A DNA stretch of 64,000 nt. It comes from Methylomonas sp. LL1 (lineage in GTDB: Bacteria; Pseudomonadota; Gammaproteobacteria; Methylococcales; Methylomonadaceae). The stretch spans positions 62,001-126,000 of the forward strand of contig NZ_CP064653.1 in assembly GCF_015711015.1 (NCBI RefSeq), read 5' to 3'. A model generated the notes under the pieces. The model saw nothing but the letters and a program-made list of their open reading frames with translations, was not told where the DNA came from and did no database searches. This document shows, piece after piece, positions 7,655-50,330 of the stretch (position 1 is its first letter; the number at the start of each line of letters is the position of its first letter). Position numbers and translations under genes: made by a program.

Positions 7655-7911
7655 ATTTGTGAAGAAACAGACTTTTACGCATCACTCCAAGTAGATGTCT
7701 ATGACTAAAGCACAACAAACGGGAATACGTAGCGCATTCCGAGTGGCGGCACTGGTGGGCTGCGGGCCGACACTTCGCCGCCGTCGCTATAGAAAACACC
7801 CGGATCGATTAGTATTCGCGCGGGTGATAGGACAGGATAGCGTTCTCGATAGATACAGTCTTTTACCCAATCAGATAACGATTCAGACACTAATCAATTA
7901 TGGAGATCAGT

Positions 7912-15522: not shown

Positions 15523-18500
15523 GGCCTTCCCCTTCGGTTGCGGCCGTTTTGGATTTTGCCAGGTTTTCCACGAAATAGAACAATACCGGGATCAAAAAAA
15601 TGGCGATGGCGGTGGCGGCGGTCATGCCGCCGATGACCGCATAGCCCATTACCCGTCTCGACAAGGCGCCGGCGCCGCTGGCGATGGCGAGCGGTACGCA
15701 GCCCAGGATGAACGACAAAGCGGTCATCATAATTGGCCGCAGACGCAGGCGGGCGGCTTCCAGTGATGCGTCATAGAGGCTCTTGCCTTCCTCGACTCCC
15801 ATTTTGGCAAATTCGACGATCAGAATCGCGTTCTTGGCCGCCAGGCCGATCAACATCACTAGACCGATTTGCGCGTAGATGTTGTTCTCGTAATGTCCGA
15901 CCATCAAACCGGCAAAGGCACCGAACACCGCGATCGGCGTACCCAGCAATACGCTGAATGGCAGACTCCAGCTTTCATACAGCGCGGCCAGGATCAGGAA
16001 CACGCAAAATATGGCAAAGGCAAACACCACAGTCGGCGAAATGCCTTGCTGAGCCTGCTTTTCCTGGAAACTCATACCGATGTAGTCGTAGCCCATGTCC
16101 GAGGGCATGGTTTCGGCGAAGACTTGTTCCAACGCTTTCATCGCTTGGGCCGAGCTGAAGCCGGGTTTAGGCGTGACATTGATCTGCGCGCTGCGGAACA
16201 GGTTGTAGCGCATGGTGAATTCCGGGCCCTCGGTTTTGCGGATGGTGGTCAGCGCGGCCAGCGGCACGGTGTCGCCGGCGTTGTTGCGCACATAGAATTG
16301 CCCCAGCGCATTGGTGTCCTTGCGATATTCGCCTTCCGCTTGCACATAGGTCTGCCATTGCCGGCCGAAGCGATTGAAATAGTTGATGAAGCCTGAACCC
16401 ATATAAGCCTGCAAGGTTTTGTAGACATCCGATAGCTGCACGCCTTGTTTCAGCACCTTGTCTCTATCCACATCCACCATGATTTGCGGCACCGATGGCA
16501 CGGCGGTGGTAAAGGCGTTGGCGATTTCGGGGCGATTCTTCGCCGCGGCGATGAATTTCTCGGTGTTGGCGGCCAAATAGGCGACATCCTTGCCGGCCCT
16601 GTCTTCCAGCACCATGGTCACGCCGCCCGAGGTACCCACGCCCGGAATCGCCGGTGGCGGGAAGGCCACGCCAATTGCTTCGGGAAGTTTGGCCAGCTCC
16701 TGATTCAGATGCGCCTTGATGGCCGCGTATTGTTCTTCCGGCTTGGTGCGTTCCGCCCAGTTTTTCAATGAAATGAAGAAAAAGGTGTTGTAGGTGGTAT
16801 TGGCTTGGCTGAGCATGTTGTAGCCAATTACCGAGGAGTAGAATTCTACGCCAGGGGTATTTTTCAGGATTTCCTCCACCTTGCGAGTGGCCTCGTCGGT
16901 GCGTTGCAGTGAACTGACGTTGGGTAACTGAATGCCGGCGAACAGATAACCCTGGTCTTCGTCGGGCAGAAAGCCCATCGGTACGCTTTTACCGAGTCCT
17001 CCGGCAAACACCGTCAAAATCCCCAGGAAAACCATGCTGAGCAGACTCTTGCGTATCAATACCGAGCAGAAACTGACATAGCCTTCATTGGCAATACCGA
17101 AGCGGCGGTTGAAAGCGTCGTAGAATTTTTGCAGCGGACCCGTGCCACGCACTCTGGGTCTTAACAGCAGTGCCGCCAATGCCGGACTCAACGACAAGGA
17201 GTTGAAGGTGGAAATCATTACCGACACACCCACCGTGACGGCGAATTGCTGGTACAGACGGCCGGTAATGCCTGGAATGAACACGGTTGGCAAAAATACC
17301 GCAATCAACGCCAACGAAGTGCCGATGATGGGGCCGGTGACTTCCTGCATGGTTTTTAGCGTGGCTTCCTTGGGGCTCAAACCCTTTTCGATATGATGCT
17401 CGACTGCCTCAACCACCACTATGGGGTCGTCGACTACCAGACCGATCGCCAGTACCAGACCAAACAGCGACAGGGTATTGATCGAGAAACCCAGCATTGG
17501 GAATAGCATGAAGGTGCCGATCAACGATACAGGTACCGCCAACAGCGGAATCAGGGTAGGGCGCCAGCCTTGCAGGAACAGGAACACCACCAGTATCACC
17601 AGAACCATGGCCTCGAACAAGGTATGCATGATTTCGTTGATGCCTTCGGTAACCGCCAACGTGGTGTCCAAGGCAATCACATAATCCAAGTCTTCGGGGA
17701 AGCGAGTCTTCAGTTCCTCCATCACTTTTTTTGCGCCCTCGGCTGCTTCGATGGCGTTGGTGCCGGGTAGCTGATAGAGGGCGACCAGCGCAGCCGGTTT
17801 GCCGTTCAAGCGTCCTATCATGTCGTAGGTCTGGGCGCCCAGTTCGATACGGCCGACGTCCTTGATCCGAACGATGGAGCCGTCGGATTCGGCTCGTAAG
17901 ACGATATTGCCGAATTCTTCCTCGGTCTGCAGACGGCCTTGAGCCCGCACCGCATAGGTGAATTCTTGGCCGGGTGGTACCGGCTCGCCGCCGACCTTGC
18001 CGGCCGGGTTGACGTTGTTCTGCGCCTGCACGGCGCTGACGATTTCCGGGATGGTGATATTCAGTTTCGCCAATTGATCCGGCTTGACCCATATTCGCAT
18101 CGCATATTGACCGGCGCCGAATACCGACACGCTGGCGATGCCCTTGACCCGGGTCATCTGGTCGTTGATGTTGATGTAGGCGTAATTGGCCAAAAAGATG
18201 TTGTCGTAGCTGCCTTTCGGTGAGTACAGCGCGAACATGACCAGCGGCGATGCGGTGGATTTTTGCACGTTGACGCCGAAATTGCGTACGTCCTGCGGCA
18301 GTTGCGATTCGGCCTGGGATTTACGCATCTGCGCAAGTACTTGGTCGGTGTTCGGGTCGGTCGCTACATCGAAATTAACCCGCAACGTCATCTGCCCGTT
18401 GTTGGCGTTGATGGAATACATGTAGTTCATGTTATCCACGCCGGACATCTGCTGTTCGATGGGGGTAGCCACCGATTGTTCGACCGTCACCGCATCGGCA

Positions 18501-40633: not shown

Positions 40634-40894
40634 TTAGGCCATTCTTTCAGGCTGGCAAGCGTGATGAGCCGGTAATGCGGAGCGTATATCCTTGAGTAGA
40701 AAGCGTTTCAATCCACGTCCCAGTCTTTGCCCGAGTAGCGACATGGCCGTGTCCTTGTTGATGAAAGCCGAAGGCTCCATGCCTTTACGGTATTTGAGCA
40801 GGGCTTTTCGTGCCGTCGAGGATAGATAGCATTCGGTGCCTTCTGGTAATGAGGTGTGTAAGTCTCTTAGAAGATGGGGGGTTATTTTATTCAT
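40634..40894 (-). CDS. Small conserved-looking protein of unknown function
   Basis: 86 residues, soluble and basic (many Lys/Arg in the middle: STARKALLKYRKGMEP, LGRGLKRFLLKDIRS). An excellent ribosome binding site (AAGGAG, then AACGTC before ATG) and a downstream minus-strand terminator make it a real gene. I do not recognise the family. It sits between the N-ATPase operon and the phospholipase D-type gene. Confidence 0.65.
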   Translation of the reverse strand: MNKITPHLLRDLHTSLPEGTECYLSSTARKALLKYRKGMEPSAFINKDTAMSLLGQRLGRGLKRFLLKDIRSALPAHHACQPERMA

Positions 40895-41148
40895 GACGTT
40901 CTCCTTATCTCTTACGAAGTGTTGAGTGGTAATTCCATCACCAAGTCAAGGTCGATTTCCGGACCTGTTATTTAAAAAAAATAACGCTATCAACTTAACA
41001 ATTTGGCAATAAAAATCAAGCATAATTTTGCTGGTTTTCTTGATGCGGTGGATTGACATAAGCCCGGTTTTTTGCTTGGTAACTCCAATTCTGAATCCGG
41101 ACGGTATTTGGTGCATAATTCCGAATCTGTTTCATTCCGGACAACGAT

Positions 41149-42741
41149 ATGCAAGTAGCAGAACATTATGCAAAACCCGTGTTTGGCAAACTGGGCGGCT
41201 TTTTTCAGCGCGTCAACGATTTCAAGGACACCTTTAGTCTACGTTGGGGCAGGATAGAGTTTGATATGTTTCATGGCATGTCGGCCAACTTGAAGGTGAT
41301 TTTGAAGATTTACCGCGATGCGGTTTGCGAAACCTTTATCGTCGATACCGACGCCTTCGATATTCAATGGGACAGGCATAAACGGGCGACTCGCGATTTT
41401 TTCATTCATCCGTACTCGACCCATTTCGGCAAGATCAATTGCATCAAGTTTTCGTTCATCGTGCATCTGGGCGAGCATTCGATAGCGTCGCGGAACGAAT
41501 ATATTTTCATGGACTGGTATCAACTGCAGGATGGTCATCATCAGCAGCGTACCATTACCGATGAGCATGCCACCGCCAATCACCATCGTACCTATGAGCT
41601 GAATTCCGGCGAGTTGCAAGCCGATGTCGATTGGTATAACCACCATTTTCATTCGCTGAATCTGATTCCCAAATTCACCAAGGGTCAGCAATATCACCCG
41701 TATCACCCGAAACGCTTCATTCACGACCATATCGACAAGGTCATCATCAGCAAACGCGATAATCCGAATCGGCTGTGTACCATCAAGGTCAGCGTCGACT
41801 GCATAGACGACAATGATTTCGTCAATCATTTGATACACGCCAGCCATCAAGGCGTCTGGGTGCAATGCGTGGTCGACTGGCGCAAGATGACCATGACCAA
41901 TAGCCACACCTATGTCAATCTGAAACGCTCAGGCATAGAACTGATCGGCGTGTTCTGTACTCCCAAGCATCATTTGATCGAAGTCGAGCCGGATATGCAT
42001 ACCAAATTCATCATCTTTAATGATGAAGATTGCATCATCGGTTCATTCAACATCACCTTCGACCGTTGGTGGGCCAATTGGGAATCCGGCATGACCTTTC
42101 ATTCGAAGGGCGTTTGCCGCTTACTGGATAATATTTTCCAGAGCCAGCGCGGCGGCGTGATCCAAAAATACGGTATCGACCCGTTGAGTCCGTTCAATTT
42201 GCTGTATACCTTCGGCCGGCACACCATGGCCAATGGGCAGGTTTATCGGCCGCACCATGCCATTCTGGCCGAAATTCACCGGGCGCGGCATTCGATCAAG
42301 ATTTGTCTGTTTTTAATCGGCGATTTGCTCGGCGATCATCATGACAGCGTGGTGAGCGCCCTAATTCAAGCCAAGGAGCGGGGCGTTGATGTGCAAATGC
42401 TGTTCAATGGCCACCTGGCCCGGCAGGGGCGGATCGGGGTTGAGCGGCCGATGCACGAGGAGTTGAACCGGCCCTTGCTGCCGGCGGTACAGCGCTTGAA
42501 GTGGGCTGGGATACGAGTAGGCCTGGTGTATGGGCAGGATGATCTACCTGTGCCGTATTCGCCCATCCATTCCAAGTATTGCGTGATCGACGATTACATC
42601 GTTATCGAAGGCAGCTTCAACTGGTATAACACCTCGGTGTTTTCCCACGATCTGATTGTGGTGGCCGCCAACCACGATGTGGCTAAACCTTATTTGTATG
42701 AGTTTGACCAGATTCAGCGCTTGTTCAGGGTTTTTTATTGA
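41149..42741 (+). CDS. Phospholipase D-family protein with two HKD motifs
   Basis: 530 residues without signal or membrane helix. Two PLD half-sites: HTKFIIFN, followed by GSFN (around residue 284), and HSKYCVID followed by GSFNW (around residue 475). The first has Asn at the position of the usual Asp of HxKxxxxD, with an Asp next to it; the second is canonical. PLD enzymes cleave phosphodiester bonds in lipids or nucleic acids through a covalent histidine intermediate. The first 270 residues are a separate domain with many histidines that I cannot name. The last 18 codons are duplicated about 7.2 kb downstream. Confidence 0.85.
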   Translation: MQVAEHYAKPVFGKLGGFFQRVNDFKDTFSLRWGRIEFDMFHGMSANLKVILKIYRDAVCETFIVDTDAFDIQWDRHKRATRDFFIHPYSTHFGKINCIKFSFIVHLGEHSIASRNEYIFMDWYQLQDGHHQQRTITDEHATANHHRTYELNSGELQADVDWYNHHFHSLNLIPKFTKGQQYHPYHPKRFIHDHIDKVIISKRDNPNRLCTIKVSVDCIDDNDFVNHLIHASHQGVWVQCVVDWRKMTMTNSHTYVNLKRSGIELIGVFCTPKHHLIEVEPDMHTKFIIFNDEDCIIGSFNITFDRWWANWESGMTFHSKGVCRLLDNIFQSQRGGVIQKYGIDPLSPFNLLYTFGRHTMANGQVYRPHHAILAEIHRARHSIKICLFLIGDLLGDHHDSVVSALIQAKERGVDVQMLFNGHLARQGRIGVERPMHEELNRPLLPAVQRLKWAGIRVGLVYGQDDLPVPYSPIHSKYCVIDDYIVIEGSFNWYNTSVFSHDLIVVAANHDVAKPYLYEFDQIQRLFRVFY

Positions 42742-42744
42742 ATC
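42681..42744 (+). repeat. Direct repeat, left copy (3' end of the PLD gene)
   Basis: 42688-42744 is identical over 57 bases to 49884-49940; with one mismatch the match reaches back to 42681. It covers the last codons of the PLD gene and its stop. Between the two copies lies the Rhs toxin-immunity block. This is the pattern left by insertion at, or recombination with, the 3' end of a gene. Confidence 0.92.
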
Positions 42745-43019
42745 CGGAGTTGTGCCAGTATCAAATCTCATAATAGCGAAATGAAACCTAACAATTTATG
42801 AAGTGACTAACTGACTGGTTTTGTGGAGCAAAATCCGTATATGCCGCTGTCGACCTCAAGCGACATTCGCTCCGGTTTTGCCAATGGTCGCAAATTGATA
42901 ATAAGCCGATGTTGGGTTTGCAGAAGGCTGGGTTGAATAATAATGAACCTCAGCTTTGAAGCCGATAAGTTTCAACAAGCATTTTGAATGCGAAGGAGTT
43001 GGGTTATTTCAAAGCAGTC

Positions 43020-43046
43020 GCTGGGTTTCACGTTGCTCTACCCAGC
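43020..43046. repeat. Short palindromic element
   Basis: GCTGGGT and ACCCAGC form a 7-bp stem around 13 bases (TTCACGTTGCTCT). The form, a TGGGTTTC...CTCTACCCA palindrome, resembles short interspersed hairpin repeats common between genes of gammaproteobacteria. No second copy was seen in this window, so the family is inferred from its look. Confidence 0.45.
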
Positions 43047-43171
43047 CTTGTTCGTAGCGATTACGACAGAGACTGATCATGGGATTGATGCCTTTTTTGC
43101 CCATTTTAGCATCCACGAGCAGCGCACCCTTCCACTTCCGCTTCCTTTTTGCCGGATGTTGGAGCAGAGTT

Positions 43172-43423
43172 GCCAATAACTGTGCTGGTGACATCGCTGC
43201 TGGTGCTGGAACCATATCCAGCAACCCTGGGAAAATCACCGGCGTCGTTAGATAACTCCCCAGTGCTGCAGGGCAAATAGCTATCACGGACAGGAACCTA
43301 TCCGGCGATTCCAGGCGATACCCCAATGCTGTTGGGAATGCCACCAAAAGTATTAGGTATTCTCCCAGAAGCGCTAGGGACAAATCTACAGGTGATGGAT
43401 AAGGCCCTGAAGCCGCTAGGAAT
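43172..43423 (-). repeat. Decayed 21-bp tandem repeat, heptapeptide type
   Basis: Twelve units of exactly 21 bases follow each other with no shift in register. Read on the minus strand each gives a heptapeptide of the type [ILVF]-[PS]-[SN]-x-x-G-x: for example IPSGFRA, VPSASGR, IPNTFGG, IPNSIGV, SPGIAG-stop, VPVRDSY, LPCSTGE, LSNDAGD, FPRVAGY. One unit has an in-frame stop (near 43298). After the repeat the frame ends in a short tail with a stop near 43108. It looks like the remains of a heptapeptide-repeat gene or a repeat that multiplies by slippage. Confidence 0.7.
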
Positions 43424-43521
43424 GTAAAAAATAGGCTGGGAACAGATTATTTGAAAAACCAGATATATTCCGGTAGAGTTTTTGATCAAACATACGGCCT
43501 TAGAATAGGAAATTTAGAAAT

Positions 43522-46500
43522 ATGAAAGGAATCAATTTCAACACAAAGCTAGCCAATAGAGTTTCAACGAATTGTTCTCAACGCGATGGGTTCTGGATAG
43601 AGTTTGGGCGTTTCGAGTTATCAAAAGCATATATTGGCGATTTTTTGCGGCTAACAAAGAAAATCTTCATTTTATATTTATTGTTGATTTCGACTGCTTC
43701 ATTTGCAACTAATAAGTTCTATTTTTTTTATCCAAATCAATCCGCTGCCTATGCTGCTTGGTTTGCATGCGTAGGCTGTCCAGGCGATTCTCAATCGGGT
43801 TCGGTTAACGGCGGGGGGACTAGTTCAAAATGTATTCCACAGAATACCTTAAAAAGAAATATCAAAGTTGGCGCATATCCTTGGCCTACTAAAGGTCCAG
43901 ATGGCTCGGCGAGCTGGACTGTGGAGTGGTTAACTTGTGATACCGGTTATGCTACTTGCCCCGCAAACCAAACCAGAGTATTCCCATCCGGCAATTGTTC
44001 CATTATTAAAGAGGAAAAAAAGAATAAGGGACAGCCGAATTGTAATGAAACGGAAGGGAATCCAATTAATGCCGGAATGGGAACAAAATTTCAAGCCGAA
44101 ATCGATTACCAAGGCTCGAGCCAATTCCCATTAGTTTTCGAACGGTTCTATAACAGTTCATTAGTTGCGGTGAATAGCGCTGTCGGAAAAAACTGGCGAC
44201 ATAATTTTGCAAACTCGATTAAAGTTAATACCGAAACCGAGATACAGATAAGCCGGGCTGACGGTAAGGAATATACATTCAGGCGGGTTGGAAATAGCTG
44301 GCTGCCGGATGCCGATGTCATTGACAGTCTCACGGAATTGACTGATTCAGGTGGTATGCGAATGGGTTGGCGCTATTCGGCTGAAAATGATGTCGTAGAA
44401 ACTTACGACGCGAGCGGAAGATTACTTAATATCAGCAATCGATTAGGCCTTGGTCAAGACCTGATTTACAGTAATGCCTCAACACCTACATCGATAGCGC
44501 CTTATGCGGGTCTATTGATACAGGTTACAGACCATTTCGGCCGAAATCTTAGTTTTACCTATAACAGCTCCGCTCAGATTGTTTTTGTCACCCTTCCCGA
44601 TAGAAATATGACGAAATATGCTTACGATACTAAGGGCAATCTGACTACGGTTACTTATCCCGACGAAACGCCAAGCATAGTCACGGATAATCCTAAGAAA
44701 ACCTACGTGTATGGTGAGCTAAATAATACCGGTTATACTGGTCAACCCAATGCCCTGACCGGCATCATCGATGAAAACGGCGTGCGTTACGCCAGTTATC
44801 GATACGATGCGCAAGGTAAGGCGATTTCGACCGAACATGCCGGCGGTGTGGAGAAATATAGCCTTAACTATGCCCAGGACGGTAGCAATACCGTCATTAC
44901 CGATCCCTTAGGCACAATCAGGACGACTCGATTCACCACCGTGTTAGGGGTTGTAAAAGCCACGGGCTCGGATCAACCGGCCGGTGCCGGCTGCGCCGCC
45001 TCGGCCAGTAACCTCGGCTACGACACTAACGGCAACATCGCCAGCCGCACCGACTTCAACGGTAACCTGAGTTGCCATGCCTATGACTTGAACCGCAATC
45101 TGGAAACCGTTCGCGTCGAAGGCTTGCCCGTCGTTGCCGGCTGTCCTGCTGATCTGGCGGCGTACACGCCACTCGCCGGCAGCAGCATTCGTAAAGTCAG
45201 CACCCAATGGCATGTCAATTACCGCTTGCCGTCGCAAATCGATCAAGCCGGGCAACGCATCCACTTTGATTACGATGCCGCCGGCAACCTGCTGCAAAAA
45301 ACCGTCACCGACACCGCAACCCAGCAAAGTAGGACTTGGAACTACACCTACAATAACCTAGGCCAAATCCTCACCGCCGACGGCCCGCGCACCGACGTCA
45401 ACGACATCACCACTAACACCTATTACGCCGACAGCAGCGCCAGCCACAAACCCGGCGACCTTTGGACCGTCACCAATGCCCTGGGCCACGTCACTACCTT
45501 TACCGCTTACGACGCCAACGGCCATTTGCTGAGCCTGACCGATCCCAATGGCTTGGTCGTCAGCTTTGCCTACGACCCGCGCGGTCGACTGACGCAAAAA
45601 ACCGTCGACGGCAACGCCACCCTTTATACCTACGACAGAGCCGGCAACCTGACCCAAGTCACTCAGCCCTCCGGCGTTTATTACCGTTATACCTATGATG
45701 CTGCCCACCGCCTGACCGACATCACCGATGCACTGGGCGGTAAAATCCATTACACCCTGGATGCGATGGGCAACCGGACTAAGGAAGAAATCTTGGATGC
45801 CGCCGGCACGGTCGTCAAAACCCACAGCCGGGTTTACGATGCCCTGTCGCGACTGGCTCAGGACATCGGCGCCTACAATCAGACCACACAATACCAATAC
45901 GACCCCAACGGCAATCTGACTAAAATCACCGATGCTAATGGTCATGCCACCCAGCAGCAATATGACAGTTTGGACCGCTTGATTCGCAGCACCGACGCCC
46001 TCAATGGCCAAACCGACTACGTGTACAACGCCCTGGACCGCCTCACCCAAGTCACCGACGCCAACAACCACAGTACGCTCTATAGCTTCAACGGCTTGGG
46101 CGATCTGACTCAACTCGACAGTCCCAATACCGGCACCAGCCAATATAGCTACGACAGCGCCGGCAACATGTCGCAAAAAACCGATGCCGGCAACATCACG
46201 GCCAATTACAGCTACGATGTCTTGAACCGCCTGCTCGGTATTGATTATCCGGGCACGGAAGCGGACGTCGTCAATAGTTACGATGGAACCGTCCAAGGCT
46301 GGGCCGGCCAAAAAGGCTACCTGTCTAGCGCTCGCCGAGGGAGTATTGAAACCAAGCAACAATTCGATTTGCGAGGCAATCTGACAAATAACACTGTTTA
46401 CTACGCCAGCCAGAGTACCTTCACCGCGACTGGATACACTTACAACGCCGATGGACAACCGATCGGAACTCAAGTGACAGGTACGTTCTCTCCGACCGTG

Positions 46501-48012
46501 AGCACCATCCAAAATCTTTACGACGCAACAGGTCAAGTACGTAGAGTACAAGTCGTTGAAAGCGGCACGAACGGCACTGCTACCCATATTTTGGCCGACA
46601 ACGTCGTCCATTTGCCGTTCGGTCCGATCAAAAGTCTGGATTACGGCAATGGCTTGAGCATAAACCGAAATTACAACGAGGATTACCGCCTGAACGCCGA
46701 AACGGCCGGCAGTGTTTTTATGCAGCGCTACACATACGATGCCGTAGGTAATATCGCCACACAAAGCGACGACACTGGCACGGTCAAAGAGGAAGCCTAT
46801 ACCTATGATGAACTAGATCGATTGGTTACCACGCTGGGCACCCATTTGACTTACCAATCTCGAGGCTATGGCTACGACCCCGTCGGTAACCGTAGCACGT
46901 TGGATGTGGACACCGTTCATACCGGCTACCAATACGACCTCGTCAGTCAAAGACTCGGCAGCGTCAACCGCAATGGTAGTGTGACAACCTATGCGACGAA
47001 CCCGCAAGGGCATATTAGCCAAATCGGCGCCCGAACCAACAACTATGCGCCCGACCAGCGACTGTCATCCGTCACCCAAGGCGGCGTACAGAAAGGCCGT
47101 TACGACTACGATGCCTTCGGCCGGCGGATTCGAAAAGTGGCACTGCTGGACATGGATATGATGAGTTACGACAGCGAGGGCCGGCTACTGGTCGAATGGG
47201 GCTGGCTGGCCAGCTTGCCGGACTATAGCGTCATCCAGTATGCCTACCTGGATGGCCAGCCCCTGGCGCGCATCGACGACACCTTAAGCGGCACAAGCGA
47301 CATCCGTTACTATCACAACAACCACCTGGGTGCGCCGCTGAAAGTCAGCGACCAACAAGGCCAAACGGTCTGGAGCGCCGACTACGATCCTTTCGGCCAA
47401 ACCACCATCACCCTGGCCGGTATCACCCAAAACCTGCGCCTGCCCGGCCAATATTTCGACGCCGAAACTGGTTGGCATTACAATATGCAGCGATATTACG
47501 ATCCGGGTACAGGACGGTATTTGCAGAGCGACCCGATTGGGTTGGCGGGGGGCATTAATACTTACACCTATGTGCGAAACAATCCCTTACGTTATATCGA
47601 TCCATTGGGATTAACGTTAGAAGATATTTACGTAGCCAGACAATTAGCAGTTGAAACTCAACCCGATCTAAAGTTTCCTGATTACTATCCAATAAAAGAT
47701 TTGGAAAGCATTTATCATGACCCTACTATTGTTGCGGCAACTACACGTGGTGCCCTCGACACTTGGCTTGATGACCGGTATCTTGCTGATCTCAATGATG
47801 TGGAAGCTGGTAAGCTACTTGATACAATCATTCATGAGGCTATTCATTCAAAACTAGATCCAAAGGATCCACGCCAAGAAGATAATAATGGAAAAGGCTA
47901 TCCTTATGACCAGGCAAGGAACCGGGCAACTCAACGGTTAATCAATGAATTTAATAGACGTAGAAAACCACCACGTTGCGATAAAAATTCTATGTGCTGT
48001 GGGCAACCATAG
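43522..48012 (+). CDS. Secreted Rhs/YD-repeat protein with metallopeptidase-like tip
   Basis: 1496 residues. A signal-like segment (LTKKIFILYLLLISTASFAT) starts at residue 44, after a 43-residue extension. A TTG at 43645 two codons before it would give a clean Sec signal, so the annotated ATG is doubtful. Order: cysteine-rich part (60-170), DUF6531-type segment (around 180-255), many YD repeats (GRLTQKTVDG, YTYDRAGNL and similar) and the Rhs core end (YYHNNHLGAPLKV to IDPLGL, ending at residue 1364). The last 132 residues are a variable tip with IIHEAIHS: His1438, Glu1439 and His1442 form an HExxH zinc motif. There is no PAAR or VgrG part, so Sec export rather than type VI delivery is likely. 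The tip DNA is AT-richer than the core. I infer a contact toxin with a peptidase tip. Confidence 0.88.
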   Translation: MKGINFNTKLANRVSTNCSQRDGFWIEFGRFELSKAYIGDFLRLTKKIFILYLLLISTASFATNKFYFFYPNQSAAYAAWFACVGCPGDSQSGSVNGGGTSSKCIPQNTLKRNIKVGAYPWPTKGPDGSASWTVEWLTCDTGYATCPANQTRVFPSGNCSIIKEEKKNKGQPNCNETEGNPINAGMGTKFQAEIDYQGSSQFPLVFERFYNSSLVAVNSAVGKNWRHNFANSIKVNTETEIQISRADGKEYTFRRVGNSWLPDADVIDSLTELTDSGGMRMGWRYSAENDVVETYDASGRLLNISNRLGLGQDLIYSNASTPTSIAPYAGLLIQVTDHFGRNLSFTYNSSAQIVFVTLPDRNMTKYAYDTKGNLTTVTYPDETPSIVTDNPKKTYVYGELNNTGYTGQPNALTGIIDENGVRYASYRYDAQGKAISTEHAGGVEKYSLNYAQDGSNTVITDPLGTIRTTRFTTVLGVVKATGSDQPAGAGCAASASNLGYDTNGNIASRTDFNGNLSCHAYDLNRNLETVRVEGLPVVAGCPADLAAYTPLAGSSIRKVSTQWHVNYRLPSQIDQAGQRIHFDYDAAGNLLQKTVTDTATQQSRTWNYTYNNLGQILTADGPRTDVNDITTNTYYADSSASHKPGDLWTVTNALGHVTTFTAYDANGHLLSLTDPNGLVVSFAYDPRGRLTQKTVDGNATLYTYDRAGNLTQVTQPSGVYYRYTYDAAHRLTDITDALGGKIHYTLDAMGNRTKEEILDAAGTVVKTHSRVYDALSRLAQDIGAYNQTTQYQYDPNGNLTKITDANGHATQQQYDSLDRLIRSTDALNGQTDYVYNALDRLTQVTDANNHSTLYSFNGLGDLTQLDSPNTGTSQYSYDSAGNMSQKTDAGNITANYSYDVLNRLLGIDYPGTEADVVNSYDGTVQGWAGQKGYLSSARRGSIETKQQFDLRGNLTNNTVYYASQSTFTATGYTYNADGQPIGTQVTGTFSPTVSTIQNLYDATGQVRRVQVVESGTNGTATHILADNVVHLPFGPIKSLDYGNGLSINRNYNEDYRLNAETAGSVFMQRYTYDAVGNIATQSDDTGTVKEEAYTYDELDRLVTTLGTHLTYQSRGYGYDPVGNRSTLDVDTVHTGYQYDLVSQRLGSVNRNGSVTTYATNPQGHISQIGARTNNYAPDQRLSSVTQGGVQKGRYDYDAFGRRIRKVALLDMDMMSYDSEGRLLVEWGWLASLPDYSVIQYAYLDGQPLARIDDTLSGTSDIRYYHNNHLGAPLKVSDQQGQTVWSADYDPFGQTTITLAGITQNLRLPGQYFDAETGWHYNMQRYYDPGTGRYLQSDPIGLAGGINTYTYVRNNPLRYIDPLGLTLEDIYVARQLAVETQPDLKFPDYYPIKDLESIYHDPTIVAATTRGALDTWLDDRYLADLNDVEAGKLLDTIIHEAIHSKLDPKDPRQEDNNGKGYPYDQARNRATQRLINEFNRRRKPPRCDKNSMCCGQP

Positions 48013-48055
48013 CTTGATTTTCATTTAAGAACTATTTTTGGAATGCTTTTAAAAT

Positions 48056-48625
48056 ATGTTAAAAATAAGTAAATATATAGGTATTGTTTTTTTATTTATT
48101 GCAATTTTTTGTAATATAAAATTTGCTTTTGCAGAAGATAATTCGAAAGTTAGAGGAATTGAAAGACCCATTTTTCTTACAATTGCAGCGTCAAATAAAG
48201 ATGATGATAAATTAGATCACGGGATATATATATTCAATATACATTGTGCTTCAGATGGTTGTAGTCTTGAACGTATTTCAATGAATGAATGTGTCAATGA
48301 TAAAAATGGTTCATTAAGTTTTACTCCGACAGTTGACTCCTGGGTTTCATGGGCAGGATCATTAGAGGCTAATCTCAATGATAATGTTCTTGAATTAGAT
48401 GTTTTTGAAAGAACTCCTCATTCATCTCCCGCAAAAATAAAGCTAGAGTTGGACTTTTCAAATACTCAATCTGTTCAAATTAAATCTTTCAAAGCAACAG
48501 GATTCTTTAATTCAAAAAAATGGCCTGGGACTGATAGAGTTGAATTCGTACCATTGCCTGGTGATCAAACCAAACAGTTAAATTGCCCTGTGTTTTTGCC
48601 AGGAATTACATCGGAGAAAAAATAA
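48056..48625 (+). CDS. Exported protein, candidate immunity to the Rhs tip
   Basis: 189 residues with a signal peptide (about residues 1-26, ending FAFAEDN). The mature part has few lysine clusters and is mostly beta strands; I recognise no family. It lies 43 bases after the Rhs stop on the same strand and shares the low GC content of the Rhs tip. Position and export signal fit a periplasmic immunity protein that blocks a toxin acting outside the cytoplasm. This is an inference from gene order. Confidence 0.65.
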   Translation: MLKISKYIGIVFLFIAIFCNIKFAFAEDNSKVRGIERPIFLTIAASNKDDDKLDHGIYIFNIHCASDGCSLERISMNECVNDKNGSLSFTPTVDSWVSWAGSLEANLNDNVLELDVFERTPHSSPAKIKLELDFSNTQSVQIKSFKATGFFNSKKWPGTDRVEFVPLPGDQTKQLNCPVFLPGITSEKK

Positions 48626-48659
48626 CGGTATGACGTAGTAGATGAGTGTATGACGGTGT

Positions 48660-48892
48660 GGCCTAAACATATACACCTATGTAAATAACAATCCATTAAA
48701 TGCCATTGACCCATTGGGGCTTGACCTGATTTTAGTAGGTCAGTCAGGTAATGCAGGCAATTTATTTATGTTAGCTGCACAAACTTACAATGCACAAAAT
48801 GGAAAGATAAATTCAATGAAGCCTATGGTAAGTTTGCAAGTGATCAATTAAAGGCAAAATATAGGGGAATGTATGAATATAATTTTAGATAA
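48660..48892 (+). pseudogene. Orphan Rhs tip with frameshift
   Basis: No start codon. The frame from 48660 gives the Rhs core end (YTYVNNNPLNAIDPLGL) and then a new tip (DLILVGQSGNAG, LAAQTYNAQNGK), with a stop at 48849-48851. If the frame is changed near 48802 the tip goes on as KDKFNEAYGKFASDQLKAKY and RGMYEYNFR up to 48892, a clearly protein-like end. So this is a displaced toxin tip broken by a frameshift. It overlaps the next gene by 20 bases, the usual toxin-immunity arrangement. Confidence 0.75.
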
Positions 48893-49439
48893 ACGCTATT
48901 ATTTATTGCTAAGTTTTATTTTGCTCGTCTCTTTTGATGTGCAAGCAGGTTATAAAGATTTTTTAGAAATAATTAAGTCGTCTATTGTTCCTGAGTCGGA
49001 TACCATTTTTTTTGGAAAGACGTCAGGATATAAGATAATAGAAAATGGATATGTAACTGATTCCGGTGAGGCATTATCTGTTGCGATTATTCAAGTAGAG
49101 GTCGTAAAGCCGCTTAGAGGCAAGATTAAAACAGGGGAGAAACATTTAGTATGTACCTGGTTTATTCCTGGGGGTGGTAACTCTGGGTTATATGGTTTTA
49201 ACTACGGAAAAGATAATGATGAAATAACCATATTAGGAATAGCAACAGAGTACAATATACAGTTACCTCAATTTCGCTATCACTTAATTGGTGGATTTGA
49301 TGTTGAATCTATAATTAAGGAAGGTTTAAATCTCCCTGAAAAACCTAATGAAGATAAATCTCGCATTTTGACAACTTTTTCCGAACCTAGAGATAAAATT
49401 ATTAGAAACGCATGCAATGAAGCTAATGCTTGGCCCTAA
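48873..49439 (+). CDS. Exported protein, candidate immunity to the orphan tip
   Basis: 188 residues with a signal peptide (about 1-25, ending VQAGY). The mature part contains VVKPLRGKIKTGEKHLV and a glycine-rich FIPGGGNSGLYGFNYG segment; I cannot assign a family with confidence. Its start overlaps the repaired frame of the orphan tip by 20 bases. Like the other tip genes it is AT-rich. It is probably kept because it protects against relatives that still carry the toxin. Confidence 0.65.
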   Translation: MNIILDKRYYLLLSFILLVSFDVQAGYKDFLEIIKSSIVPESDTIFFGKTSGYKIIENGYVTDSGEALSVAIIQVEVVKPLRGKIKTGEKHLVCTWFIPGGGNSGLYGFNYGKDNDEITILGIATEYNIQLPQFRYHLIGGFDVESIIKEGLNLPEKPNEDKSRILTTFSEPRDKIIRNACNEANAWP

Positions 49440-49455
49440 CAACTGAAAGTAATGA

Positions 49456-49665
49456 ATAATACCTGGCGGCGTTAATACTTACACCTATGTAAACAATAAT
49501 CCGCTAAATCTCACCGATCCTCTTGGACTTGATCCATTATGTGCAGCGAATGGACAAAGTATTGTCTGTACAGATGGCATGCGCCCACCACCTGCCGGTA
49601 CCCCACTAAATGGGCCATTGAGTCCCGTTGGCGTGGCGGCAACGGCTGCTGAAGCAACGCGATAA
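49456..49665 (+). pseudogene. Second orphan Rhs tip
   Basis: An open frame without start begins GGVNTYTYVNNNPLNLTDPLGL, the Rhs core end, and continues for about 45 residues (DPLCAANGQSIVCTDGMRPP, then a proline/alanine-rich end) to the TAA at 49665. It shares 19 consecutive bases with the end of the intact Rhs core (TTAATACTTACACCTATGT). No immunity gene follows, so it is a fragment or a tip whose partner is lost. Confidence 0.7.
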
Positions 49666-49707
49666 GGTGCGCTAAAACTCGATGCCGATAGGATGTGCCG
49701 ACGCAAG

Positions 49708-49737
49708 GAGGCGCATCTGTCGCGACCGATGCGCCTC
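49708..49737. repeat. 10-bp perfect inverted repeat
   Basis: GAGGCGCATC (49708-49717) and GATGCGCCTC (49728-49737) enclose a 10-base loop. No T-tract follows on either side. It lies between the last orphan tip and the right direct repeat. Confidence 0.55.
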
Positions 49738-49801
49738 GCCACTGGCCTTATTGGAATGCCCCAGAAACAGGGGCTTGCCACGAACAATTTTAGTTATGTA
49801 G

Positions 49802-49823
49802 GGTACGCATTGCGTACCTTTTT
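49802..49823 (+). terminator. Terminator-like hairpin
   Basis: GGTACGC (49802-49808) and GCGTACC (49812-49818) with an ATT loop are followed by five T. It could end transcription from the Rhs block. A similar palindrome is found as a scattered repeat in other bacteria, so it may be an inserted repeat that serves as terminator. Confidence 0.6.
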
Positions 49824-49876
49824 GGCGTTTGATTCATCGGAAACATTGAAAATGGTATGTGATGCATACTCTACGC

Positions 49877-49940
49877 GGCTAATCCTTATTTGTATGAGTT
49901 TGACCAGATTCAGCGCTTGTTCAGGGTTTTTTATTGAATC
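49877..49940 (+). repeat. Direct repeat, right copy (orphan PLD 3' end)
   Basis: 49884-49940 equals 42688-42744 over 57 bases. In frame it still reads AANPYLYEFDQIQRLFRVFY and then the stop at 49937, the end of the PLD protein, but no PLD gene lies in front of it. Its stop is only 37 bases from the stop of the convergent small gene, which suggests that this was the original right neighbour of the PLD gene. Confidence 0.92.
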
Positions 49941-49973: not shown

Positions 49974-50330
49974 TTAATCATTTGCCCCTTTGTCAGGGAG
50001 GCACCGGTCTGGGGTAAGTTCGGCTTCTTTATCGATAAGCTCGGGCATTGGTGGTGTATCGGCGCTTGTCGATACGATGCGTTTCCATGCCTTTTGCATC
50101 TGTTCCAGAGTGGCTTGAGCTTGTTGGCGGGTCCCGAAGGGGCCGTGGAACTCGGCGTGTTCGTTAAATCGTCTTTCCCGAATGTGGTCTGGCCAGTTGA
50201 CGATATAAAAGCCCGGCACCAAGGGTTTTTCGTGGCCAGTGCGGTATTTTCGCTGATACGAATCGGAGTCGACTAGCCAGAAATCGCGGATGACGGTTGC
50301 AATCTCGAACTTTTCATAATGAGTATCCAT
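49974..50330 (-). CDS. Small protein of unknown function
   Basis: 118 residues, soluble, with aromatic and charged residues mixed (RDFWLVDSDSYQRKYRTG, GFYIVNWPDHIRERRFNEHA) and a glutamine-rich helix (RQQAQATLEQMQKAW). GGAG lies six bases before the ATG. I do not recognise a family. It converges on the PLD gene end and lies downstream of the giant kinase gene, separated by a structured 300-base leader. Confidence 0.65.
   Translation of the reverse strand: MDTHYEKFEIATVIRDFWLVDSDSYQRKYRTGHEKPLVPGFYIVNWPDHIRERRFNEHAEFHGPFGTRQQAQATLEQMQKAWKRIVSTSADTPPMPELIDKEAELTPDRCLPDKGAND

What the first reader, a model, noticed from the sequence alone, without database searches (positions are those of the whole stretch)
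42681..49940. Rhs toxin-immunity block flanked by a 57-bp exact direct repeat of the PLD gene 3' end
42688-42744 and 49884-49940 are identical. The left copy is the end of a phospholipase D-family gene. The right copy still encodes the same last residues and stop but has no gene in front of it. Everything between is Rhs core, AT-rich tips, exported candidate immunity genes and short repeats. The simplest reading is that a 7.2-kb block entered at the 3' end of the PLD gene, or recombined with a copy of it. No integrase or transposase is visible in the block, so the way it moves would be new or supplied from elsewhere.
Basis: partly seen in the sequence, partly recalled or inferred. Interest (0 to 1): 0.75.

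Follow-up and report, generated by a model that had tools for sequence, protein, structure and literature searches.

The report
Gene-end scar of an inserted toxin block
In this Methylomonas chromosome a 7.2-kb Rhs toxin block lies between an intact gene and a 57-bp orphan copy of that gene's end, and because Rhs blocks in related genomes show the same scar behind three other genes, the block likely entered by recombining with the end of its neighbour gene rather than through an integrase of its own.

Summary
Window 42688-42744 and 49884-49940 are identical (64 bp at 63 of 64), with no third copy in the genome. The left copy ends an intact PLD gene; the right copy is an orphan with a REP palindrome against it.

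No empty PLD site was found. The layout recurs, however: in 4 of 20 Rhs loci examined (PLD in the window, nasT and tpm in G013, lipA in G027) an intact gene precedes the block and an orphan copy of its 3' end follows it, against 0 of 148 mock comparisons. For tpm an empty site exists: G008, G026 and G000 have tpm followed by the epimerase that in G013 follows the orphan end.

The repeat is most likely the scar of an additive recombination: incoming DNA carrying the gene's end plus Rhs cargo recombined with the resident gene and pushed its old end downstream. Against Rhs specificity, G008 has such a scar at PLD without a strong Rhs match. Jackson 2009 (circular intermediates) and Kirchberger 2017 (illegitimate recombination) are close precedents; host-gene ends as anchors, with REP or RAYT sequence near three of four right junctions, look like a new variant.

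The parts
41149..42741 (+). intact PLD-family gene (530 aa) behind which the block lies
   Evidence: ORF; PF13091 E 9.9e-36; ortholog in 32 of 37 Methylomonas genomes
42688..42744 (+). left copy of the 57-bp repeat: last 17 codons, stop and 3 bases of the PLD gene
   Evidence: exact match, two places in the window, two in the genome
42745..43521 (.). left flank of the block; 43088-43427 has an 89% copy at G000:C2 about 2848 kb
   Evidence: blastn, sequence; no such flank behind PLD in the loci compared
43522..48012 (+). Rhs gene (1496 aa) with a C-terminal tip carrying HEAIH
   Evidence: RHS_repeat 1.5e-69, DUF6531, RHS; Rhs_assc_core; tip found in three other proteins; HEAIH by eye
48056..48625 (+). 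AT-rich gene with signal-peptide-like start, candidate immunity gene
   Evidence: ORF; no family match
48660..48724 (+). displaced Rhs core end (first orphan tip)
   Evidence: repeat family D1
48873..49439 (+). AT-rich gene with signal-peptide-like start, candidate orphan immunity gene; 67% DNA match beside the Rhs gene of G011
   Evidence: ORF; match to L197
49468..49532 (+). displaced Rhs core end (second orphan tip)
   Evidence: repeat family D1
49793..49882 (.). REP-type palindrome pair ending GGCTAA, against the right copy
   Evidence: RNA-parameter fold -39.3 kcal/mol; DNA fold z -2.15, 3 of 200 shuffles as good; dispersed relatives in the genome
49884..49940 (+). right (orphan) copy of the 57-bp repeat
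   Evidence: exact match; no PLD gene in front
49974..50330 (-). 118-residue gene g118, right neighbour; follows a histidine-kinase gene as in G030

Best explanation
The 57-bp repeat is likely the scar of an additive recombination in which incoming DNA carrying the end of the PLD gene joined to an Rhs toxin block recombined with the resident PLD gene and pushed that gene's old 3' end to the far side of the block. Shown: the exact repeat, the orphan state of the right copy, the same layout behind nasT, tpm and lipA in related genomes, and for tpm that the orphan end still adjoins the gene that follows tpm directly in genomes without the block. Inferred: a homologous (RecA-type) crossover inside the shared gene leaves an intact gene with a new downstream flank; the right side closes by an illegitimate join inside the resident gene, here at the six shared bases GGCTAA next to a REP palindrome (homology-facilitated illegitimate recombination). 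A circle integrating by one crossover would leave the same layout and is the nearest variant. The cargo is a predicted polymorphic toxin with candidate immunity genes and displaced tips; the direct repeat would also allow the block to be lost again.
For: Exact 57-bp repeat, two copies in the genome; coding parts differ at 0 of 51 sites, every other PLD end compared at 6 or more, so the event is young. Same architecture at nasT, tpm and lipA: 4 of 20 Rhs loci, 0 of 148 mock comparisons, Fisher p 1.5e-4. tpm: G013's orphan end plus right flank align with G008 tpm-epimerase at 86.7% over 3248 bp, while the 290 bp behind G013's intact tpm match G015. nasT: DNA right of the orphan end leads after about 5.2 kb to the region lying 220-580 bp behind nasT in G033, G003, G021 and G032, and 45 bp behind the intact gene match G015. 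GGCTAA stands both at the REP end and at the matching place in PLD. G008's two PLD ends have different histories.
Against: No empty site or donor arrangement was found for PLD itself, and none for lipA (0 of 29 lipA loci carry G027's right flank). 16 of 20 Rhs loci show no such scar in the span tested. G008 has a PLD-end scar without a strong Rhs match, so the process is not tied to Rhs. In G013 the two ends of tpm are more like each other than like other genomes' tpm, so a foreign donor is not shown by the gene ends themselves. G015, which shares the tpm left flank, shows no tpm orphan end. The control loci are all PLD-centred, partly the same genomes held twice, so the p-value is optimistic.
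Confidence: 0.6

Rival explanations
1. REP/RAYT-assisted insertion: a REP-associated tyrosine transposase, supplied in trans, cut at a REP or RAYT end of the block and joined it into the 3' part of the gene, so the block has a defined right end.
For: A REP pair abuts the PLD orphan end. The REP half with the same CGGCTAA end recurs 24 bp from the tpm orphan end in G013, and in the fetched DNA no other place matches it through that end, with 14 REP half-sites in 2.77 Mb. A Y1 transposase gene (PF01797) runs up to the nasT orphan end, and another lies about 0.74 kb from the tpm orphan end.
Against: No transposase gene in the block here, and none found by tblastn in the 245 kb of this genome that I held (most of the genome was not searched). 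lipA and the G008 PLD junctions show no such REP or RAYT sequence. The tpm and nasT junctions do not fold better than shuffles (z 0.39 and -0.44). This was noticed after the fact.
Confidence: 0.17
2. Duplication in place: the gene end was copied in the same chromosome (tandem duplication or rearrangement followed by decay), and the Rhs block lies between by accident of reshuffling.
For: In each case the two copies are closest to each other. Gene order around PLD is strongly reshuffled: the usual upstream neighbour and a common downstream block lie 1.5 and 2.8 Mb away in this genome. G008 shows a PLD-end copy with other cargo.
Against: At tpm and nasT the flank behind the intact gene differs from that behind the orphan end and matches another genome, which copying in place would not give. 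3'-end copies are uncommon in general: 11 of 366 ORFs, of which two are the PLD cases and seven look like tandem paralogues by my reading.
Confidence: 0.13
3. Remnant of a site-specific integrase island at gene 3' ends, with the 57 bp as attachment site and the integrase lost.
For: Direct repeat of a gene 3' end with the gene left intact, the usual look of such islands (recalled).
Against: No integrase match among the block ORFs tested. Four different genes and repeat lengths of about 55 to 258 bp. Other insertions behind PLD leave no such repeat: none before radA in 14 loci, one PLD-end copy in 28 flanks. The flanks just behind the two stops differ.
Confidence: 0.08

Closest known systems
Rhs C-terminal tip displacement through circular intermediates (Jackson et al. 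2009, PMC2935791; abstract part and passages seen)
   Same: Rhs locus with displaced tips; a circle entering by one homologous crossover leaves the old 3' end downstream
   Different: There the homology is the rhs core inside the locus; here it would be the 3' end of an unrelated host gene, and the whole Rhs gene is the cargo
Homology-facilitated illegitimate recombination of effector-immunity modules (Kirchberger et al. 2017, PMC5361080; passages seen)
   Same: Homologous anchor on one side, illegitimate join on the other, old 3' end pushed downstream
   Different: The anchor there is the upstream part of the effector module in a T6SS cluster; here the displaced end belongs to a neighbouring PLD, nasT, tpm or lipA gene
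Integrase islands at gene 3' ends (recalled)
   Same: Gene kept intact, direct repeat of its 3' end
   Different: No integrase found, repeat lengths and target genes vary
REP/REPIN elements and RAYT transposases (PMC2817692, PMC3116915; abstract starts in the listing only)
   Same: REP palindromes or a Y1 transposase gene at or near three of four right junctions
   Different: Moving a block of 7 kb or more is not something I saw described for them

Membership tests
Rhs polymorphic toxin locus | YD/RHS repeats with Rhs-associated core before a variable tip | tested here: met
   PF05593 1.5e-69; TIGR03696 5.5e-27 at 1288-1364; tip after residue 1365
Rhs polymorphic toxin locus | displaced orphan tips downstream | tested here: met
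   core ends at 48660 and 49468
Rhs polymorphic toxin locus | toxic tip neutralised by the adjacent gene | not testable with these tools
   HEAIH by eye and signal-peptide-like neighbours only
Additive (one-sided) recombination | intact gene, cargo, displaced resident 3' end in its old context | tested here: met
   met for tpm with empty sites and for nasT with more DNA in between
Additive (one-sided) recombination | empty site for the window's own PLD locus | tested here: not met
   g118 in 4 of 37 genomes, none seen beside PLD
Additive (one-sided) recombination | circular or linear donor molecule | not testable with these tools
   needs PCR or reads
Site-specific integrase island | integrase gene in the element | tested here: not met
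   no match among block ORFs tested
Site-specific integrase island | one attachment sequence used repeatedly | tested here: not met
   other inserts behind PLD lack the repeat; four target genes
REP/RAYT-mobilised element | REP or RAYT sequence at the junctions | tested here: inconclusive
   at or near the right junction in 3 of 4 loci, absent at lipA and G008 PLD

The most novel reading that the evidence does not exclude
Rhs toxin blocks in Methylomonas are integrase-less islands: each uses the 3' end of whatever gene it sits behind as its attachment site, leaves as a circle through the two gene-end copies, re-enters the same gene in a neighbouring strain by homologous recombination, and founds new sites through a REP-derived right end with help from a RAYT supplied in trans.
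Probability: 0.17. Interest if true: 0.78.

Novelty: new variant of a known kind. Interest (0 to 1): 0.5.

Why it matters
How tips are swapped on an Rhs gene has a model; how whole Rhs loci reach new chromosomal places without an engine of their own is much less clear. A recurring scar, an orphan 3' end of the neighbouring gene, gives a readable mark of such arrivals: it names the acceptor gene, tells which flank is resident, and can be searched for in any genome. It also predicts a circular form and precise loss, both easy to test.

Tried and rejected
Empty PLD site: not found; g118 (4 of 37 genomes) and relatives of the kinase lie elsewhere. PLD stop codon as a general integration site: rejected; the DNA behind PLD differs in most genomes, and radA lies 20 to 6953 bp behind PLD in 14 of 28 loci without a PLD-end repeat before it. 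Viruses, plasmids, phages: a 32-base piece of the repeat has no exact match in viral contigs; the block matches 28 plasmid and 2 phage records over at most 7% of its length. Simple target-site duplication: rejected for tpm and nasT because the two post-stop flanks differ from the stop on. The 18 bp beyond the repeat agree at 10 of 18, reached by 140 of 20000 random pairs: only suggestive. Extension of the tpm orphan end to the REP end: not supported (309 of 1000 shuffles). Rfam: one sub-threshold hit, not credible. A fifth case, 530 bp at 96% (last 184 bp of a 550-aa gene and 346 bp beyond) about 23 kb apart around an Rhs locus of G005, appeared in 1 of 6 loci whose flank was extended; kept apart because most of the stretch is other genes. 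Rhs loci: one search gave 32 rows; 24 of them make up the 20 loci examined; 8 rows (three in G015, three in G016, one each in G007 and G002) were not examined. One search stopped with an error at the twelfth locus; one search tested all 20 with another method. An earlier, cruder mock test gave 1 of 74 (a 3.3-kb duplication at L160). PLD-flank counts include contig-end loci with little downstream DNA (28; 80).

Full report
What is there. The window is C2:62001-126000 of a two-contig, 4.92-Mb genome; named relatives of its PLD gene are mostly Methylomonas and other Methylococcales. The PLD gene 41149-42741 is intact, and its last 51 coding bases, stop and three further bases recur exactly at 49884-49940. 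With the left extension the repeat is 64 bp at 63 of 64, and the genome shows no third copy. Between the copies lie 777 bp of left flank, an Rhs gene (43522-48012), two AT-rich genes with signal-peptide-like starts, two displaced Rhs core ends, and a REP palindrome pair against the right copy. The Rhs tip carries HEAIH (by eye) and is shared with three other proteins.

Age. The coding parts of the two copies differ at 0 of 51 sites, while each other PLD end compared differs from them at 6 or more. The right copy has no visible reason to be conserved, so the duplication is young, or has been kept alike by conversion.

PLD in relatives. The gene is present in 32 of 37 Methylomonas genomes. What follows its stop changes between most genomes. 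Where radA lies behind PLD (14 of 28 loci), inserts of up to 7 kb occur without a PLD-end repeat. One of 28 flanks in the held genomes has a longer PLD-end copy, G008, and one of 80 in named genomes, Methylomonas sp. WSC-6, whose contig length and coordinates are those of the G008 contig. It spans about 228 bp, 205 alike, about 1 kb downstream; a 287-aa ORF on the other strand lies between (ModE-like by my reading), and G008 has no Rhs match at E <= 1e-50. G015 keeps a 24-bp trace at a similar place. In a tree of the 228-bp ends the G008 orphan falls outside G008, G015 and G013 (support 69; G008 with G015 96). This weakens a link with Rhs but fits displacement of a resident end.

The same scar at other Rhs loci. 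Of 20 Rhs loci (19 fetched, mostly 20 kb each, plus the window, 30 kb), four have an orphan copy of the upstream gene's 3' end on the far side: PLD here; nasT (ANTAR) in G013, whose orphan end is itself split by a later insert; tpm (TPMT) in G013, where the 55-bp, 78% copy ends exactly at the stop; lipA in G027, where 258 bp at 98.5% start inside the gene's last 44 bp and run 214 bp past the stop. A 3'-end test on 74 Rhs-free loci, both strands, gave 0 of 148; Fisher p is 1.5e-4, optimistic because the loci are related, all PLD-centred, and partly the same genomes held twice. The other 16 loci showed none in that span; extending six of them gave one more, weaker, case. In a wider control 11 of 366 ORFs had a 3'-end copy within 8 kb, two of them the PLD cases and seven, by my reading, tandem paralogues.

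An empty site. For tpm, G013's orphan end and the DNA to its right align with G008, where tpm is directly followed by the same epimerase (86.7% over 3248 bp). G026 and the window's own genome G000 also have the epimerase behind tpm, at +9 and +134. The 290 bp behind G013's intact tpm instead match G015, where other genes (gsp-like by my reading) follow and neither Rhs nor a tpm orphan end was found. For nasT, the DNA right of the orphan end leads after about 5.2 kb to a region lying 220-580 bp behind nasT in G033, G003, G021 and G032, 8.9 kb behind it in G008 and 10.7 kb in G015; 45 bp behind the intact gene match G015. In both cases the orphan end looks like the old resident end in its old place, while the intact gene has a different tail plus cargo. 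By analogy this is the best reading of the PLD case, for which neither an empty site nor a donor was found; lipA has no empty site either (0 of 29 loci). At tpm the two ends in G013 are more like each other than like other genomes' tpm, so the donor was probably of the same species.

Junctions. The window's REP pair ends GGCTAA, and PLD has GGCTAA at the matching place: six shared bases. The REP half with this end recurs 24 bp from the tpm orphan end of G013; apart from an overlapping fetch of that place, no other stretch of the fetched DNA matches it through that end. A Y1 transposase gene runs up to the nasT orphan end. The lipA orphan end is preceded by an unrelated hairpin (z -3.6); the window junction has z -2.15, and the tpm and nasT junctions fold no better than shuffles. 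I take REP/RAYT as a helper hypothesis, not as shown.

Mechanism and precedent. Incoming DNA that carries a gene end and cargo and recombines in that gene produces this layout. As a linear molecule it is homology-facilitated illegitimate recombination, proposed for effector-immunity modules by Kirchberger et al. 2017 (PMC5361080, passages seen); as a circle it is the single-crossover step of Jackson et al. 2009 (PMC2935791, passages seen) with a host gene in place of the rhs core. The searches listed, as far as titles and abstract starts show, no paper that describes Rhs blocks bounded by the 3' end of a neighbouring host gene; most of the lists were capped at 8 to 12 rows and the library lacks most subscription journals. 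The finding is therefore filed as a new variant of a known process.

Noticed in passing
L046, +994 to +1223 after the PLD gene (G008): A second PLD 3' end (about 228 bp) lies behind other cargo without a strong Rhs match, and branches apart from G008's own PLD end.
   Followed up: yes
L067, L068, L080 and other PLD loci, PLD-radA interval: radA starts 20 bp behind PLD in G020, G035 and G011 but 1 to 7 kb behind it in relatives; this interval collects varied inserts, VapBC-like by eye in G010.
   Followed up: partly
window 40634-42741 and G000:C2:1585624-1587087: The gene that stands just upstream of PLD in many relatives is about 1.5 Mb away in this genome, while PLD sits behind an N-ATPase-like operon; gene order around PLD is strongly reshuffled.
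   Followed up: partly
window 43088-43427 and G000:C2 about 2848 kb (L087, L316): A 345-bp stretch of the block's left flank has an 89% copy elsewhere in the genome, about 50 bp from a REP copy.
   Followed up: partly
window 49655-49746: A second palindromic repeat recurs downstream of the Rhs gene in several other Rhs loci (L199, L200, L207, L208) and also away from Rhs genes.
   Followed up: no
L203 3956-4485 and 27690-28219 of its extension (G005): A 530-bp, 96% direct repeat that includes the last 184 bp of a 550-aa gene lies on both sides of a stretch with an Rhs locus.
   Followed up: partly
L194, reverse-oriented 7656-7758 and 18052-18154 (G013): The nasT block has matching Y1-transposase gene sequence at both inner ends in direct orientation (95%), another possible route to a circle.
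   Followed up: partly
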